Assembly: GCF_000017625.1 (NCBI RefSeq)
Contig: NC_009712.1
Span: 1,674,001-1,738,000 of the forward strand
DNA length: 64,000 nucleotides
Origin: Methanoregula boonei 6A8
GTDB taxonomy: Archaea; Halobacteriota; Methanomicrobia; Methanomicrobiales; Methanospirillaceae
Reading direction: 5' to 3'
Both the position numbers and the translations under genes were made by a program. The first letter of the stretch is position 1; each line of letters opens with the position of its first letter. Positions 26,401-32,401 of the stretch are shown here, one piece after another. The notes under the pieces are model-generated. The model saw nothing but the letters and a program-made list of their open reading frames with translations, was not told the origin of the DNA and made no database searches.

Positions 26401-27513
26401 TTACTCTGCCCCGTACGGGCGGTTTGCCCGCAGGCACTGCGCAAGATCTGCAAGGACAGGCTCGATCGCCTGTTCCTTCCGGTATCGTTCTGCGATCTGC
26501 TCGGCAAGGCTGCCTTTGGCAATCCGCTCTTTGATAACCGGGAGATACTGCCGTTCCTCGGCTGTTGCCTTTCGCCAGGCATGAGAGTACAACGCTTCCA
26601 GTTCGGGCAAGAGGCCGGCCGTACCCTGCCGGATCGCTGTTTCGGTAAGCGCAAGGAGCGAGTCCTGGTCGCTCTCCACCGGAAGGGTTGTACAGCGGAG
26701 AAGGGAGGAGACGAATGCCACAAATGCCATGTCCGAGCGGACGCACTCCTGTTCGTCAAGCGCCTTGATCTCCAGGCACTGCCGGGAGAACCGGATGATA
26801 AGGCCGCTTGAATTGAGCCACTCCTCGCAGAGGATTGCCGCATCCCGTTCCCGGAGCTCTGTATAGATCACTTCCTGCGCAGATTTGTACTCTGCAACAG
26901 ATGAAAGCCGGGCCGGGATGATCCCGCTGCAGATCCCCGGGATCTCTTTCTGGTTCTCGCGGTAAAAGAGGAGCCGGTTGTCCATGGCCCCGGTCAGCCT
27001 TCCCTCGACCATGGGAGAGGAGGCCGAAAGCGCGATAAGGTACGGGAGCAGGGTTCGGATCCGGTTGTACTGCACGAGCAGGTCCTTTTCCCCGGCATAG
27101 GAGAGATTGATCTGGAGCGCCTGGATATTGAGCCACCCGTGCTGGCGGATATTGAAGAGCCGGTCATAGGCCTCGTAGTACTCTCCCTCGTCATGGTCCC
27201 ACACAATAGCCCGGTCAAGGGTAAGTGTTGGGTGCATCCCCAGCCCAAGGAGGTGGTACCGGGCAGGAAAAACCCGGTAAAACTTTTCTATGCCGGAAAA
27301 GATCTGGGCCTCAAGCGCTGCAGGACCGGAGGCCGGCGTGCGCGGGACAAACTCGATCACGCTCTTCTGGAGCTCTTTTCCCAGATTTACTTCACCAAAC
27401 CGGATCTCGCTCTCGAACCGCCCGCAGATCGCCTTTATGATCTGGTCGGAGACCGGGAGCGCTGTAAAGTGCGCATCGTTGATCGAGTACTCGTGCTCTG
27501 TTCCGACAGTCAT
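26401..27513 (-). CDS. GCS2-family glutamate-cysteine-ligase-like enzyme
   Basis: The 370-residue protein belongs to the GCS2 (YbdK-like carboxylate-amine ligase) branch of the glutamine-synthetase fold: GTEHEYSI at the N-terminus (metal and ATP glutamates), LLGLGMHPTLTLD, QALQINLSY (substrate loop), LIALSASSPMVEGRLTGAMDNRLLFYRENQ, and a C-terminal helical region. Members join a carboxylate, often glutamate, to an amine. It is last in a four-gene operon; ATG 27513 overlaps the preceding stop codon (ATGA). With the upstream ATP-grasp ligase it suggests two successive amide-forming steps. Classical glutathione synthesis is unlikely in a strict methanogen. Confidence 0.85.
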   Translation of the reverse strand: MTVGTEHEYSINDAHFTALPVSDQIIKAICGRFESEIRFGEVNLGKELQKSVIEFVPRTPASGPAALEAQIFSGIEKFYRVFPARYHLLGLGMHPTLTLDRAIVWDHDEGEYYEAYDRLFNIRQHGWLNIQALQINLSYAGEKDLLVQYNRIRTLLPYLIALSASSPMVEGRLTGAMDNRLLFYRENQKEIPGICSGIIPARLSSVAEYKSAQEVIYTELRERDAAILCEEWLNSSGLIIRFSRQCLEIKALDEQECVRSDMAFVAFVSSLLRCTTLPVESDQDSLLALTETAIRQGTAGLLPELEALYSHAWRKATAEERQYLPVIKERIAKGSLAEQIAERYRKEQAIEPVLADLAQCLRANRPYGAE

Positions 27514-28007
27514 ACCGGGGGGTGTTCCCGTGGAATAACCGCCACGAGATCGGTCTCGGGTTCCTCGATCCGGTTGATCGCCTCGATCTCTTCTTTGGGG
27601 AGGCCGGAAACAAGCCGGACAATATTCTCTGCCGCCCGTTCGTACTGCTGGTGGTACGCCGCAGGTTGTTCCTTAAGGAGCGGGACAATCGGGCATATGG
27701 ATGCCTGTTTTAAAAAGATCCGGATGGTGTCGTTTACCACATCGAAGGTAAAAGGACCGGCCCGGCAGGTCTCGGGCTTGATCGCATGGCAGGTGCATTT
27801 GTGATCCACCATGAGGATACAGGTATTGTCCTTGTGGGTCCGGAGCCGGAAATAGCCTTCCTTCCGCTCAAACGATGCTGCCGGGATGCCGGCAGCAATC
27901 AGGGCACGGTACCGTTCCTGCGAAACCGGGGGATGTGCCTCATCGCAACAGTGTCCCCCGCAGGCCATACAGATAGCTTCGGCACGAAGCAGCCAGTCTT
28001 CGGTCAT
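27510..28007 (-). CDS. YkgJ-family CxxxxC-cluster protein
   Basis: The 165-residue protein has the eight-cysteine pattern of the YkgJ/PF03692 family, which is predicted to bind zinc or an iron-sulfur cluster: CMACGGHCC at 13-21, then CILMVDHKCTCHAIKPETC near 63-82. It starts seven bases after the ATP-grasp gene and overlaps the GCS2 gene by four bases, so it belongs to the same pathway. Proposed roles for the family include metal delivery and redox chemistry on peptides; none is shown here. Confidence 0.8.
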   Translation of the reverse strand: MTEDWLLRAEAICMACGGHCCDEAHPPVSQERYRALIAAGIPAASFERKEGYFRLRTHKDNTCILMVDHKCTCHAIKPETCRAGPFTFDVVNDTIRIFLKQASICPIVPLLKEQPAAYHQQYERAAENIVRLVSGLPKEEIEAINRIEEPETDLVAVIPREHPPV

Positions 28008-28013
28008 AATAGA

Positions 28014-28886
28014 TCACGCCGCAAAAAGGTGGCCGATGATCTGCTCGTAGATCTGCGGGTAGCAGGCATCCTCGCCGCTCTCAAGCGACGGGTTGTCATT
28101 TACCTCGATCACGCAGGCATCGCCGTTGTTGTTCTTGATATCCACGCCGTACAGGCCGTTCCCTATGGCATTACCCGCCTCAATCCCGAGTTGCACCACG
28201 TGGGGAGGGACAGCTGCTTCGGGCATGCTTTCCACCCCGCAGTACACAATATGGCCGTTGACTGAGGCCTGGATCTTGAAGGTCACCGAGGGGATCGTGT
28301 ACTTGCAGGCATACAGGAGTTTCCCGTCAAGGACTCCCACTCTCCAGTCGTATTTGCTCTCCACGAACTGCTGGACCACGATCCGGTCCGACATCTTGAT
28401 GAAGCGCCGCGCAACCCGGAAGAACTCGGCGATATCGCTCACCTTCTCCACCCGCTGCGAGAACGAGGTCGAGGGTTCCTTGAGGATGAGCGGTGTTCCC
28501 AGTGTATCGAAGAGCTCGGTAACCTTTTCGACCGTGAGATCGGTTTTTGGCAGGAATACCGTTCTTGGGAGCGCGACGTTCATCCTGATGAGATGGGAGT
28601 ACATGTTGATTTTGTCCCCGCAGATCTGGATGGAGTTTGCATCATCTATTACGGGAATCCCGTGGAATTCCGCCATCCGGGCCGCCACGTAGGTGATGTT
28701 CTTGGGATCGGTCCGGGCCCGGATAAAAAGGGCATCCATTTTCGGGATCTTGTTGATATCTACGGGAAAAAGGAACTCCGCGTTGTGCCCCAGGGCTTCC
28801 GCCACGTCCCGGCAGTGGATCAGGGCAGTAAGCTGCTCGGCGTTGGAGAGGGTTTTCCGGTCCACAAAGATGCCAAGCCGGCTCAT
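28014..28886 (-). CDS. RimK-like ATP-grasp ligase
   Basis: RimK-type ATP-grasp ligases attach amino acids, often glutamate, to a carboxyl group using ATP. From ATG 28886 the product has 290 residues: an N-terminal Rossmann-like domain (SRLGIFVDRKTLSNAEQLTA), a central portion with ICGDKINMYSHLIRMNVALP, TPLILKEPSTSFSQRVEKV (nucleotide lysine), VVQQFVESKYDWRVGVLDG, and GIEAGNAIGNGLYGVDIKNN with VIEVNDNPSLESG holding the metal ligands. ATG overlaps the preceding gene's TGA by four bases. Substrate is unknown. Confidence 0.88.
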   Translation of the reverse strand: MSRLGIFVDRKTLSNAEQLTALIHCRDVAEALGHNAEFLFPVDINKIPKMDALFIRARTDPKNITYVAARMAEFHGIPVIDDANSIQICGDKINMYSHLIRMNVALPRTVFLPKTDLTVEKVTELFDTLGTPLILKEPSTSFSQRVEKVSDIAEFFRVARRFIKMSDRIVVQQFVESKYDWRVGVLDGKLLYACKYTIPSVTFKIQASVNGHIVYCGVESMPEAAVPPHVVQLGIEAGNAIGNGLYGVDIKNNNGDACVIEVNDNPSLESGEDACYPQIYEQIIGHLFAA

Positions 28887-29665
28887 AGGAACACCTGGTG
28901 ATCGCGGTACGCCGCAAGGAATGCCCGCTCTCCCGGGGAGAGGCGCGTGTACCGCGTGGGGGCGAGCGAGGAGAGAGCGCAGGTGTCGCCGTTCCGGACA
29001 AAGACCATGTTCACAAGCGGGATGGAGAAGAGCCCGTAGAGTTTCTCCGCATAGCCGGCGATTGTCGCACACCTGTCCGTAGTCTTCCCAAAGACTGCCG
29101 TGCAGGTGCAGATCGCTGCATCATCGTCGATCTTCTGGTAGCAGAAGGGGTACTTGCCCCGGTTGGTGATGTGCTTGATCACATCCTTTGACTGATCGCT
29201 GTCCCGTACCACCGCATAATCGGTAGCCGTGGCAAAGTAGTTGATGCCGTACAGGATGGCCGGCAGGGGAACGTACGCCTGCGAGATCCCCCATTCTGCT
29301 ACCGGGATACCGGCACGTTTTGCGCGCTCAAGGCAGACCGGCACCACGAATGCATCAAGAACATCGCGGCTGGAGGGGCGGGTTGCCTCGCCTGCCTGCT
29401 CGCGGGCAAGAATGGTGTAGTAAGCCTCGGATTTGTATGAGTAGTCCTCGGCAATTACATGACAGGCACTGTCCCGCTGGATCACCGCAAGGGAGTCCCG
29501 CACCATGGCGTGATCCTTCCGGTGCAGGACATGTGCCGCTGCCCGCTTTTTTACCACCGGGCGGGGAAGCGCGCCTGATGCTGTGCCCGCGGTTTTGGAA
29601 AGAATGCTGCCCCCGGATTCAGGCATAGCCCCGGCCTCTGCCGAAGCATCCCACCTATCGTTCAT
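28883..29665 (-). CDS. RLAN-type (RimK-like ATP-grasp N-terminal) protein
   Basis: Residues 65-245 match the RLAN domain that accompanies or is fused to RimK-like ligases: VIAEDYSYKSEAYYTILARE, VLDAFVVPVCLERAKRAGI, LPAILYGINYFATATDYAVV, IKHITNRGKYPFCYQK and a C-terminal part with GNDTC-like RNGDTCALSSLAP. Here RLAN is a separate protein, translationally coupled to the ligase (ATGA). It may hold or present the acceptor. The first 50 residues are Ala/Lys-rich and doubtful; ATG 29506, preceded by GGAAGG, is a strong alternative start that gives 207 residues. First gene of the operon. Confidence 0.72.
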   Translation of the reverse strand: MNDRWDASAEAGAMPESGGSILSKTAGTASGALPRPVVKKRAAAHVLHRKDHAMVRDSLAVIQRDSACHVIAEDYSYKSEAYYTILAREQAGEATRPSSRDVLDAFVVPVCLERAKRAGIPVAEWGISQAYVPLPAILYGINYFATATDYAVVRDSDQSKDVIKHITNRGKYPFCYQKIDDDAAICTCTAVFGKTTDRCATIAGYAEKLYGLFSIPLVNMVFVRNGDTCALSSLAPTRYTRLSPGERAFLAAYRDHQVFL

Positions 29666-30020: not shown

Positions 30021-30503
30021 TTATTTCCGTACCGTATATCCCCGTTCGGTCAGGACCCGGATCACCAGATCGTCCCACCGGTTATCGTCCGGCTCGTGCA
30101 CCGGATCGATGCATTCTGTAAAGATACGGGTCACAAACGGATCCTCCGAGCAGAGGTAGCGCGAGAACATGATCCGCCCGGCCCTCCTTCCGGTCCGGGA
30201 AAGGATCAGCATCCTCCAGCATCCATAGTCCCGGCAGATATCGGGCCGGGTCAGGTGCACGGTACAGAATGCCTTTTCGGAACCGGGCTGGTGCCGGAAG
30301 AACGGGCATGCCTCGGGGAGTTTGTCAAAGATGGCCCGGTCATCGTACAGGGCCTGCTTATCCGGGTCCACCACAACAACGTTGGACTCGTTTGTGTAAC
30401 GGTTAAAGACCACAAACGTATAGTTTCCGCGATCCTCGGTTATGCTGTGCACCAGCCCAAGGTGGCTGCAGCATTCCCCGCACTGCTGGCAGTCAAAAAC
30501 CAT
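30021..30503 (-). CDS. Second YkgJ-family CxxxxC-cluster protein
   Basis: The 160-residue protein begins MVFDCQQCGECCSHLG, the family's first cysteine cluster, then CPFFRH and CTVHLTRPDICRDYGCW for the second. Between them lies an extra strand-rich segment (NYTFVVFNRYTNESNVVVVD). It is a metal- or Fe-S-binding protein of unknown role. It lies upstream of the amidoligase operon on the same strand, separated by 355 bases, so a functional link is possible but not shown. Confidence 0.8.
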   Translation of the reverse strand: MVFDCQQCGECCSHLGLVHSITEDRGNYTFVVFNRYTNESNVVVVDPDKQALYDDRAIFDKLPEACPFFRHQPGSEKAFCTVHLTRPDICRDYGCWRMLILSRTGRRAGRIMFSRYLCSEDPFVTRIFTECIDPVHEPDDNRWDDLVIRVLTERGYTVRK

Positions 30504-31594: not shown

Positions 31595-32401
31595 TCACCG
31601 CGACCCGTAGGATCGGACATGGTCACGGACGCGGCGATAGGGTTCGGAGAGGGGGTTGTGGTCATCGTACATCCGCATGTCGTTGCGGTTGTACTGCTGC
31701 CGGTCGTTTCCCACAGGGCAGACCTTGATGCAGCACCCGCACGGGGACAGGTACCGGTCCCGGAGTTCTTCTGACCGGCATGCACAGGCATGCTTATCGG
31801 TAAGGTGTGCCGGGTAACCGCCGCTTTTTACAGCCGATACGGGGCAGGCGGATACACAACGCCCGCAACGGATGCAGAGGGATTCCTCTAAAACCGGGTC
31901 ACCGGGGATTTCGGCTGAGGTGAGAATGGAAGCAAACCTGACCCGGGGGCCGTACTGGGGGGTAAGGAGCATGTTGTTCTCCCCGAATGTGCCAAGACCC
32001 GCGCAGAAAGCCGCATGCCGGTGGGAAAAGAAAGCTGCCGGGTTCTCCTTTAGGACCGTAATCGACCCGTACCCGTCGCGGGGGACCCAGACCGAGGGGT
32101 AACCTTTCTCAGTCAGGAATGTGGCAAGGCGGTACGCACAGGCATCAAGAGTCTCGTTAACCACATGGTACAGCTCGTGGTACCAGATGGACGGTGCAGT
32201 GTCCACGATCGGGAGGCTGACCGGGAATCCGATCACGATCACACTTTTTGTCCCGGGAACAAGGGATGCCGGCCGGAATGCCTCCGGGACCCAGGGTTCG
32301 AACAGGGGATTGTTCCAGCGCTCTGCCGGGGCAAATCCGACAAGCGGGATATCCATGCCACCGGTTTTCCTGAGGATCTGGCGCCGGAGGAGCGAGCTCA
32401 T
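31595..32401 (-). CDS. Epoxyqueuosine-reductase-like Fe-S protein
   Basis: The 268-residue protein has the flavin/cobalamin-like N-terminal region of QueG relatives (FAPAERWNNPLFEPWVPE, SVIVIGFPV, HAAFCAGLGTFGENNMLLTPQYGPRVRF) and a double [4Fe-4S] domain: CIRCGRCVSACP and CGCCIKVCPVGND. It lacks the C-terminal HEAT domain of true QueG, and the many short archaeal homologues have unknown substrates. It is probably a soluble electron-transfer or reductase protein. The neighbouring YjbQ gene is on the same strand, 146 bases upstream. Confidence 0.83.
   Translation of the reverse strand: MSSLLRRQILRKTGGMDIPLVGFAPAERWNNPLFEPWVPEAFRPASLVPGTKSVIVIGFPVSLPIVDTAPSIWYHELYHVVNETLDACAYRLATFLTEKGYPSVWVPRDGYGSITVLKENPAAFFSHRHAAFCAGLGTFGENNMLLTPQYGPRVRFASILTSAEIPGDPVLEESLCIRCGRCVSACPVSAVKSGGYPAHLTDKHACACRSEELRDRYLSPCGCCIKVCPVGNDRQQYNRNDMRMYDDHNPLSEPYRRVRDHVRSYGSR

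What the first reader, a model, noticed from the sequence alone, without database searches (positions are those of the whole stretch)
26401..29665. Candidate peptide- or amide-ligation operon: RLAN, RimK-like ATP-grasp, CxxxxC protein and GCS2
Four leftward genes are joined by ATGA overlaps or short gaps (28883/28886, 28014/28007, 27510/27513). Two encode independent amide-forming enzymes (RimK-like ATP-grasp and GCS2) and one is the RLAN domain, here separate and coupled to its ligase. Families of this kind are predicted by comparative genomics to make small peptides or amino-acid-tagged metabolites, but few products are known. The built-in CxxxxC metal/Fe-S protein, and a second one at 30021-30503, suggest a redox or metal-linked thiol or peptide compound in a methanogen.
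Basis: partly seen in the sequence, partly recalled or inferred. Interest (0 to 1): 0.7.

Follow-up and report, generated by a model that had tools for sequence, protein, structure and literature searches.

The report
Conserved two-ligase operon in methanogens
Four overlapping genes in a methanogen, kept together across many archaea and partly in bacteria, look like a small assembly line that joins amino acids by two different ligases; such systems were predicted before, but its product is unknown, and one of its 'mystery' domains turns out to look like a dead copy of its partner enzyme.

Summary
The four leftward genes encode RLAN (PF14401), a RimK-like ATP-grasp ligase, a CxxCxxCC protein (PF03692) and a GCS2 ligase. 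In 31 related Methanomicrobiales genomes the genes that are present keep this order and strand, usually with overlapping ends. Of 150 genomes in the order, 32 have GCS2, and all 32 also have the ATP-grasp. The same four genes occur in Methanotrichaceae, and rearranged but mostly linked in Archaeoglobi and Bathyarchaeota. Some bacteria have RLAN and ATP-grasp fused, followed by GCS2. Ligase active-site residues are conserved, except for a decayed GCS2 in one genus.
New here: (1) the predicted RLAN fold matches ATP-grasp enzymes but lacks their catalytic residues, so the pair looks like a dead plus a live ATP-grasp; (2) across 115 loci the core is linked either to GCS2 (68) or to a RimI-like GNAT acetyltransferase (35), never both. 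GCS2 therefore probably does the amino-end capping that GNAT does elsewhere, giving a capped small peptide or amide.
The thiol/redox idea has no specific support, and the second CxxCxxCC gene is not part of the module. The general class was predicted in 2009, so this is a new variant of a known kind. The product is unknown.

The parts
28883..29665 (-). RLAN protein (PF14401), 260 aa; residues 1-55 low-confidence, core 56-255 predicted as an ATP-grasp-like fold without ATP-grasp catalytic residues
   Evidence: Pfam 32.5 bits; AF2 model pLDDT 82, pTM 0.73; Foldseek to ArgX/LysX/RimK/Ddl E 1e-8, prob 1.00; weak profile match to the operon's own ATP-grasp
28014..28886 (-). RimK-like ATP-grasp ligase, 290 aa, probably the active partner of RLAN
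   Evidence: PF08443 and PF02655 above cut-off; TIGR00768 75.3 bits, below its 143.4 cut-off; ATP-grasp residues 98-100% conserved in 117 homologues
27510..28007 (-). CxxCxxCC protein (PF03692), 165 aa, eight conserved cysteines, putative Fe-S or Zn protein
   Evidence: Pfam 36.8 bits; C13, C16, C20, C21, C63, C71, C81, C105 at 96-100% in 54 homologues; no PDB fold match
26401..27513 (-). GCS2 (YbdK-like carboxylate-amine ligase), 370 aa
   Evidence: PF04107 123.6 bits; profile matches plant glutamate-cysteine ligase and YbdK structures; E6, E8, E47, E54, H94, N129, Q131, R180, R241, E248, D253, Q255 conserved in archaeal and bacterial copies

Best explanation
The four genes form a conserved, translationally coupled amidoligase module. 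Shown by sequence comparison: RLAN and the ATP-grasp are an inseparable pair, and GCS2 plus the CxxCxxCC protein are a second, linked sub-module. Predicted from structure: RLAN is a degenerate ATP-grasp, so the pair would work as a dead plus live ATP-grasp heterodimer (one chain in most bacteria). Inferred: the live ATP-grasp activates a carboxylate with ATP and joins it to an amino acid, probably an acidic one, on a small acceptor or short peptide. GCS2 then makes a second amide at the amino end, most likely a gamma-glutamyl-type cap, the job that a RimI-like GNAT acetyltransferase does in the alternative version of the system. The CxxCxxCC protein is an accessory metal protein whose exact role is open. 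The output is probably a small amino-end-capped peptide or amide rather than glutathione or another known cofactor.
For: Gene order conserved in 31 of 31 relatives of the order for the genes present, with ATGA-type overlaps. Co-occurrence in 150 genomes: 32 with both ATP-grasp and GCS2, 2 ATP-grasp only (one of them an incomplete genome with a fragment), 0 GCS2 only, 116 neither. The same module in Methanotrichaceae, and rearranged but mostly linked in Archaeoglobi and Bathyarchaeota; two Archaeoglobi with GCS2 away from the locus still have it elsewhere. Bacterial fused RLAN-ATP-grasp followed by GCS2, with C39 peptidase and FGase or AstE. Partner swap: after correcting L057 and L157, 68 loci with GCS2, 35 with GNAT, 0 with both, 12 with neither, including a GNAT-RLAN-ATP-grasp fusion (L157). 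RLAN fold. Active sites intact.
Against: No substrate or product is known, and 'capping' is inferred from partner swapping alone. The strict phylogenetic pair test has too few independent contrasts to be significant (5 on well-supported branches; b never goes the same way, p range 0.125-1). The RLAN/ATP-grasp sequence match is weak: score 34 against a best of 32 in block shuffles, and none in the C-terminal half. In Methanocellales and one Methanomicrobiales genome RLAN-ATP-grasp occurs without GCS2 anywhere, so GCS2 is not always required.
Confidence: 0.55

Rival explanations
1. Protein modification: the RLAN-ATP-grasp pair adds amino acids to the end of a protein, perhaps a part of the translation machinery, as RimK does to ribosomal protein S6, and GCS2 or GNAT modifies or caps the tail.
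For: Closest characterised relatives are RimK, LysX and ArgX, which act on protein carboxylates. The partner GNAT resembles RimI, 81.7 bits against a cut-off of 86.4. RLAN-ATP-grasp sits near ribosomal protein S19e in Methanocella and beside deoxyhypusine synthase in Bathyarchaeota and Archaeoglobus. RimK-type poly-glutamylation of S6 and its reversal by a protease are reported (PMC12239564).
Against: Patchy distribution does not fit a universal translation target; FGase and AstE partners act on small N-acyl amino acids; translation genes are common neighbours in archaeal genomes anyway; no conserved target protein lies in the window operon.
Confidence: 0.22
2. One reading: a low-molecular-weight thiol such as gamma-glutamylcysteine or a longer thiol peptide, with the CxxCxxCC protein for redox or metal handling.
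For: GCS2 relatives with solved structures include plant glutamate-cysteine ligase; haloarchaea are thought to make gamma-glutamylcysteine with a GshA ligase (PMC7278568).
Against: The protein falls far below every NCBIfam glutamate-cysteine ligase cut-off (best TIGR02050 40.6 versus 176.4). An early survey found no gamma-glutamylcysteine or glutathione in five unidentified methanogens (PMC7278568). The CxxCxxCC gene is dispensable and was not found beside the bacterial copies. GCS2 is replaced by an acetyltransferase elsewhere, which does not suit a cysteine ligase.
Confidence: 0.1
3. The module decorates a known methanogen cofactor (glutamate tails of F420, methanopterin or methanofuran).
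For: The ATP-grasp has remote similarity to MptN and CofF, and these coenzymes carry glutamate tails (established knowledge).
Against: Scores are far below the equivalog cut-offs (MptN 59.9 versus 350, CofF 23.2 versus 300); related RLAN systems occur in bacteria such as Bartonella, Brucella and Legionella relatives, which are not known to need these coenzymes; most Methanomicrobiales lack the operon.
Confidence: 0.07

Closest known systems
RLAN / RimK-like ATP-grasp amidoligase systems predicted by Iyer et al. 2009 (Mol Biosyst 5:1636; PMC3268129, not held here, recalled from memory and from later citations)
   Same: RLAN domain with RimK-like ATP-grasp and linked GCS2 or GNAT-papain partners; DUF3335-GNAT fusions as possible peptide ligases are cited to that paper in PMC10318531; linked ligases making successive peptide bonds or GNAT caps in PMC4431377
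RimK / LysX / ArgX / MptN ATP-grasp ligases
   Same: ATP-grasp fold and catalytic residues; best PDB matches ArgX 3vpb and RimK 7qyr, 7qys
   Different: Below all equivalog cut-offs; obligatory RLAN partner; strongly conserved family motifs FIRxxTDP, VIDDxxSIxxCxxK and DWRxGxL
YbdK-type carboxylate-amine ligases / plant glutamate-cysteine ligase (GCS2)
   Same: PF04107 at 123.6 bits; aligned core to 6gmo, 2gwc and 1r8g
   Different: Own subfamily, far below NCBIfam cut-offs; always with an RLAN-ATP-grasp in the genomes sampled
N-acetylglutaminylglutamine amide (NAGGN) pathway (from memory, not tested)
   Same: Precedent for a GNAT plus RimK-like ATP-grasp making an N-capped dipeptide
   Different: No RLAN, no GCS2 and no CxxCxxCC protein in that pathway as I recall it

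Membership tests
RLAN amidoligase systems (Iyer 2009 type) | RLAN domain above Pfam cut-off | tested here: met
   32.5 bits versus 25; 23 of 23 archaeal homologues match
RLAN amidoligase systems (Iyer 2009 type) | RimK-like ATP-grasp fused to or beside RLAN, catalytic residues intact | tested here: met
   Beside it in all archaeal loci, fused in 33 bacterial loci; residues 98-100% conserved
RLAN amidoligase systems (Iyer 2009 type) | Linked GNAT-papain protein (as recalled from the Pfam text: 'almost always') | tested here: not met
   None beside the window operon; replaced by GCS2. The same replacement occurs in 68 of 115 loci, so it is a variant of the class rather than an exclusion
RLAN amidoligase systems (Iyer 2009 type) | Linked GCS2 (as recalled: an additional neighbour) | tested here: met
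ATP-grasp superfamily (for RLAN) | ATP-grasp fold | tested here: met
   Predicted model only: Foldseek E 1e-8, prob 1.00, TM about 0.5 to ArgX, LysX, RimK, Ddl
ATP-grasp superfamily (for RLAN) | Sequence-profile relationship to ATP-grasp | tested here: inconclusive
   hhalign E 4e-4, score 34 versus column-shuffle maximum 21.5 and block-shuffle maximum 32.4; none in the C-terminal half; no match with the smaller alignments
ATP-grasp superfamily (for RLAN) | Catalytic lysine(s) and the metal-binding E-x-N motif | tested here: not met
   RLAN's conserved residues are Y75, Y77, Y82, Y83, E89, G92, P97, D104, F192, G193, F213, P216; no conserved Lys, and no conserved acid or Asn in the C-terminal half
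Glutamate-cysteine ligase / YbdK equivalogs | Score above NCBIfam cut-offs | tested here: not met
   TIGR02050 40.6 versus 176.4; all others lower
GCS2 (PF04107) | Pfam cut-off and conserved charged residues | tested here: met
   123.6 versus 21; conserved set
RimK, LysX, MptN, CofF equivalogs | Score above NCBIfam cut-offs | tested here: not met
   75.3/143.4, 57.4/275.6, 59.9/350, 23.2/300
PF03692 CxxCxxCC | Pfam cut-off and the cysteine motif | tested here: met
   36.8 versus 23; eight conserved cysteines
PF03692 CxxCxxCC | Bound metal or Fe-S cluster | not testable with these tools
   Sequence only

The most novel reading that the evidence does not exclude
A previously unrecognised enzyme architecture, an obligate catalytically dead plus live ATP-grasp pair, serves as a common peptide-bond-forming core in archaea and bacteria. 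Its amino-end capping enzyme is exchanged between lineages: a gamma-glutamyl-type ligase (GCS2) in one, an acetyltransferase (GNAT) in the other. It makes a so far undetected family of capped peptides or amides in methanogens.
Probability: 0.35. Interest if true: 0.75.

Novelty: new variant of a known kind. Interest (0 to 1): 0.52.

Why it matters
RLAN-type ligase systems are widespread (Methanomicrobiales, Methanothrix, Archaeoglobus, Bathyarchaeota, Planctomycetes, Proteobacteria), yet I know of no product for any of them. Placing RLAN as a probable dead ATP-grasp and showing that GCS2 and GNAT take each other's place turns a vague 'amide-ligation operon' into a testable scheme, with A. fulgidus and M. 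boonei as sources of protein for in vitro work.

Tried and rejected
Thiol product: considered and marked low (family scores, dispensable CxxCxxCC, early thiol survey). Second CxxCxxCC gene at 30021-30503 as part of the unit: rejected, never beside the operon in relatives. PAS-domain gene downstream: its relatives lie near several of the loci but at varying distance and mostly on the opposite strand, as expected of a common gene; ignored. A first wide RLAN-versus-ATP-grasp profile comparison gave E 1e-99 because the fused bacterial proteins had contaminated both alignments; discarded and redone with trimmed domains. CxxCxxCC fold search: no meaningful match. PDB sequence searches with RLAN and CxxCxxCC: nothing. 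The first automatic partner labels mis-filed L057 (GCS2 lies 3.8 kb away, beyond a 3.3-kb gap) and L157 (GNAT fused in the same chain); corrected. The Iyer 2009 paper is not held, so its exact content could not be checked.
Full report
WHAT IS THERE. The window lies in a complete 2,542,943-bp genome, the size I remember for Methanoregula boonei 6A8. Four minus-strand genes run from 29665 to 26401: RLAN (260 aa), RimK-like ATP-grasp (290 aa), CxxCxxCC protein (165 aa) and GCS2 (370 aa). RLAN/ATP-grasp and CxxCxxCC/GCS2 overlap by ATGA; ATP-grasp and CxxCxxCC are 6 bases apart. NCBIfam names none of the four: every score is well below the curated cut-off, so neither ligase is an ordinary RimK, LysX, MptN, CofF or GshA.

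CONSERVATION IN THE ORDER. In 150 genomes of the order GCS2 occurs in 32 and the ATP-grasp in 34 (strong matches). All 32 GCS2 genomes have the ATP-grasp. The two without GCS2 are G002 and an incomplete genome with only a fragment, G044. I fetched up to 20 kb around 31 of them. RLAN, ATP-grasp, CxxCxxCC and GCS2 stand in this order on one strand in all 31, except that CxxCxxCC is missing in L039 and L060-L062 and decayed in L058; L057 has about 3.3 kb between ATP-grasp and CxxCxxCC. In 36 loci (these plus five Methanotrichaceae) an in-frame start lies at a 4-nt overlap of RLAN and ATP-grasp in 29, and at a slightly longer overlap in the other 7 (the script prefers starts near the overlap, so the exact count is generous).

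WIDER DISTRIBUTION. Methanotrichaceae carry the identical four-gene operon. Archaeoglobi carry RLAN-ATP-grasp and GCS2-CxxCxxCC as two facing pairs, or all four in a row but reordered. In the two Archaeoglobi (G204, G228) whose locus lacks GCS2, it lies elsewhere in the genome. Bathyarchaeota have the two pairs back to back. Rearranged but linked gene order is good evidence of functional connection. Methanocella and G002 have RLAN-ATP-grasp with no GCS2 in the genome.

BACTERIAL VERSIONS AND THE PARTNER SWAP. A scan of genome contigs brought 80 loci. In 33 bacterial loci RLAN and ATP-grasp are one chain. Eleven of these are followed by GCS2 and preceded by a stand-alone C39/papain-like protease; most have an N-formylglutamate amidohydrolase downstream, or in L155 an AstE-type gene. 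Most of the others have a GNAT fused to a C39-like domain (DUF3335), and one is a single GNAT-RLAN-ATP-grasp chain (L157). Some bacterial and archaeal lineages with separate RLAN (Calditrichota, Thermoplasmata, Methanoperedens, Methanomassiliicoccales) also have GNAT or GNAT-papain beside it. Over 115 loci the first labelling gave 67 GCS2, 34 GNAT, 14 neither and 0 both. A more sensitive profile check moved L057 to GCS2 and L157 to GNAT, giving 68/35/12/0; the remaining weak GNAT-profile hits in GCS2 loci are the C39 proteins themselves or one distant opposite-strand ORF. The ATP-grasp tree needs several changes of partner (GCS2 14, GNAT 9; at least 5 each forced by starred branches). With strictly independent pairs there are only 5 contrasts; GNAT never changes the same way as GCS2, but this cannot reach significance. 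I read this as GCS2 and GNAT filling the same slot: acylation of an amino group, that is, capping.

ACTIVE SITES. ATP-grasp: K92, K136, Q172, D180, R182, D249, K251, E261, N263, N265 are 98-100% conserved in 117 homologues. GCS2: E6, E8, D23, E47, E54, H94, N129, Q131, R180, R241, E248, D253, Q255 and D261 are shared by archaeal and bacterial copies. In one genus (g23: L060-L062) GCS2 has lost E6, E47, E54, H125 and W127 plus a segment, and the same genomes have lost CxxCxxCC: decay of the sub-module while RLAN-ATP-grasp stays. The CxxCxxCC gene is also absent from G011 and decayed in G017, which keep a good GCS2, so it is accessory.

RLAN LOOKS LIKE A DEAD ATP-GRASP. The AlphaFold2 model of the window RLAN (23 sequences, pLDDT above 90 in most of the core, pTM 0.73) has its listed best PDB matches among ATP-grasp ligases only: ArgX 3vpb E 1e-8, LysX/ArgX 5k2m, RimK 7qys, PsnB, Ddl; probability 1.00, TM about 0.5; 421 chains at E <= 1e-3. 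The CxxCxxCC model serves as a contrast: no match better than 0.36. Profile comparison of trimmed RLAN against the ATP-grasp gives E 4e-4 and places RLAN 'YYTILAREQAGEATRPSSRDVLDAFVVPVCLERAKRAGIPVAEW' on ATP-grasp 'YVAARMAEFHGIPVIDDANSIQICGDKINMYSHLIRMNVALPRT'. The score beats column shuffles clearly (34 versus at most 21.5) but block shuffles only narrowly (at most 32.4), and the C-terminal halves do not align by sequence. So the fold claim rests mainly on the predicted structure; I put it at about 0.75. RLAN has no conserved lysine, and its conserved positions in the C-terminal half are F, G and P, so it is unlikely to be catalytic. A dead partner could shape the acceptor site or hold the live subunit.

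MECHANISM, WITH STATUS. Shown: a conserved, coupled operon; two intact ligase families; obligatory RLAN-ATP-grasp pairing; no co-linkage of GCS2 and GNAT in this sample. Predicted: RLAN ATP-grasp-like fold. Inferred from family knowledge: ATP-grasp activates an acceptor carboxylate as acyl-phosphate and couples an amino acid; GCS2 activates the side-chain carboxylate of glutamate (or a similar acid) and couples an amine; together they would give a capped peptide or amide. Unknown: substrates, product, and what the CxxCxxCC protein does.

RELATION TO WHAT IS KNOWN. Amidoligase systems with RLAN, GNAT-papain and GCS2 were predicted by Iyer et al. 2009; I recall this from the Pfam text for PF14401, which also mentions a metal-sulfur protein, but the paper is not held. 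Later papers cite it for GNAT-DUF3335 fusions as possible peptide ligases (PMC10318531) and for linked ligases making successive bonds or GNAT caps (PMC4431377). I found no experimental study of any RLAN system in the held library. RimK itself modifies ribosomal protein S6 and makes poly-glutamate (PMC12239564), which keeps protein modification as the main rival; RLAN-ATP-grasp near S19e in Methanocella and near deoxyhypusine synthase in Bathyarchaeota and Archaeoglobus points weakly the same way. The archaeal thiol review notes scattered GshA-family hits in methanogens and Archaeoglobi but no gamma-glutamylcysteine or glutathione in five methanogens tested early (PMC7278568).

VERDICT. Real and conserved; a new archaeal variant of a predicted class; product unknown.

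Noticed in passing
window 30021-30503 (-): Second PF03692 CxxCxxCC protein upstream of the operon; not conserved beside it in any of 31 relatives.
   Followed up: yes
L060, L061, L062 (genus g23): GCS2 with lost catalytic residues and a deletion, and no CxxCxxCC gene in the genome, while RLAN and ATP-grasp stay intact: parallel decay of the sub-module.
   Followed up: partly
L139, L140, L141, L143, L149 and L098:6052-7569: Deoxyhypusine synthase genes directly beside RLAN-ATP-grasp in Bathyarchaeota, and deoxyhypusine synthase plus pyruvoyl arginine decarboxylase beside it in a genome of A. fulgidus size; possible link to polyamine or translation-factor modification.
   Followed up: partly
L157:6843-8900 (+): Single chain GNAT-RLAN-ATP-grasp in an alphaproteobacterial contig.
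   Followed up: yes
L057:2340-5629: About 3.3 kb lies between ATP-grasp and CxxCxxCC in this genome only; possible insertion, content not examined.
   Followed up: no
L056:6931-8725: RLAN and ATP-grasp each split into two ORFs in one Methanoregula genome (G109); sequencing error or pseudogenes.
   Followed up: no
window 31595-32401 (-): 4Fe-4S protein resembling epoxyqueuosine-reductase-type enzymes by eye (Pfam gives only Fer4 domains); upstream of the operon, relation to it unknown.
   Followed up: no
L096:13383-14297 (-): A second, RimK-like ATP-grasp gene close to the GCS2-CxxCxxCC pair in an Archaeoglobales genome.
   Followed up: no
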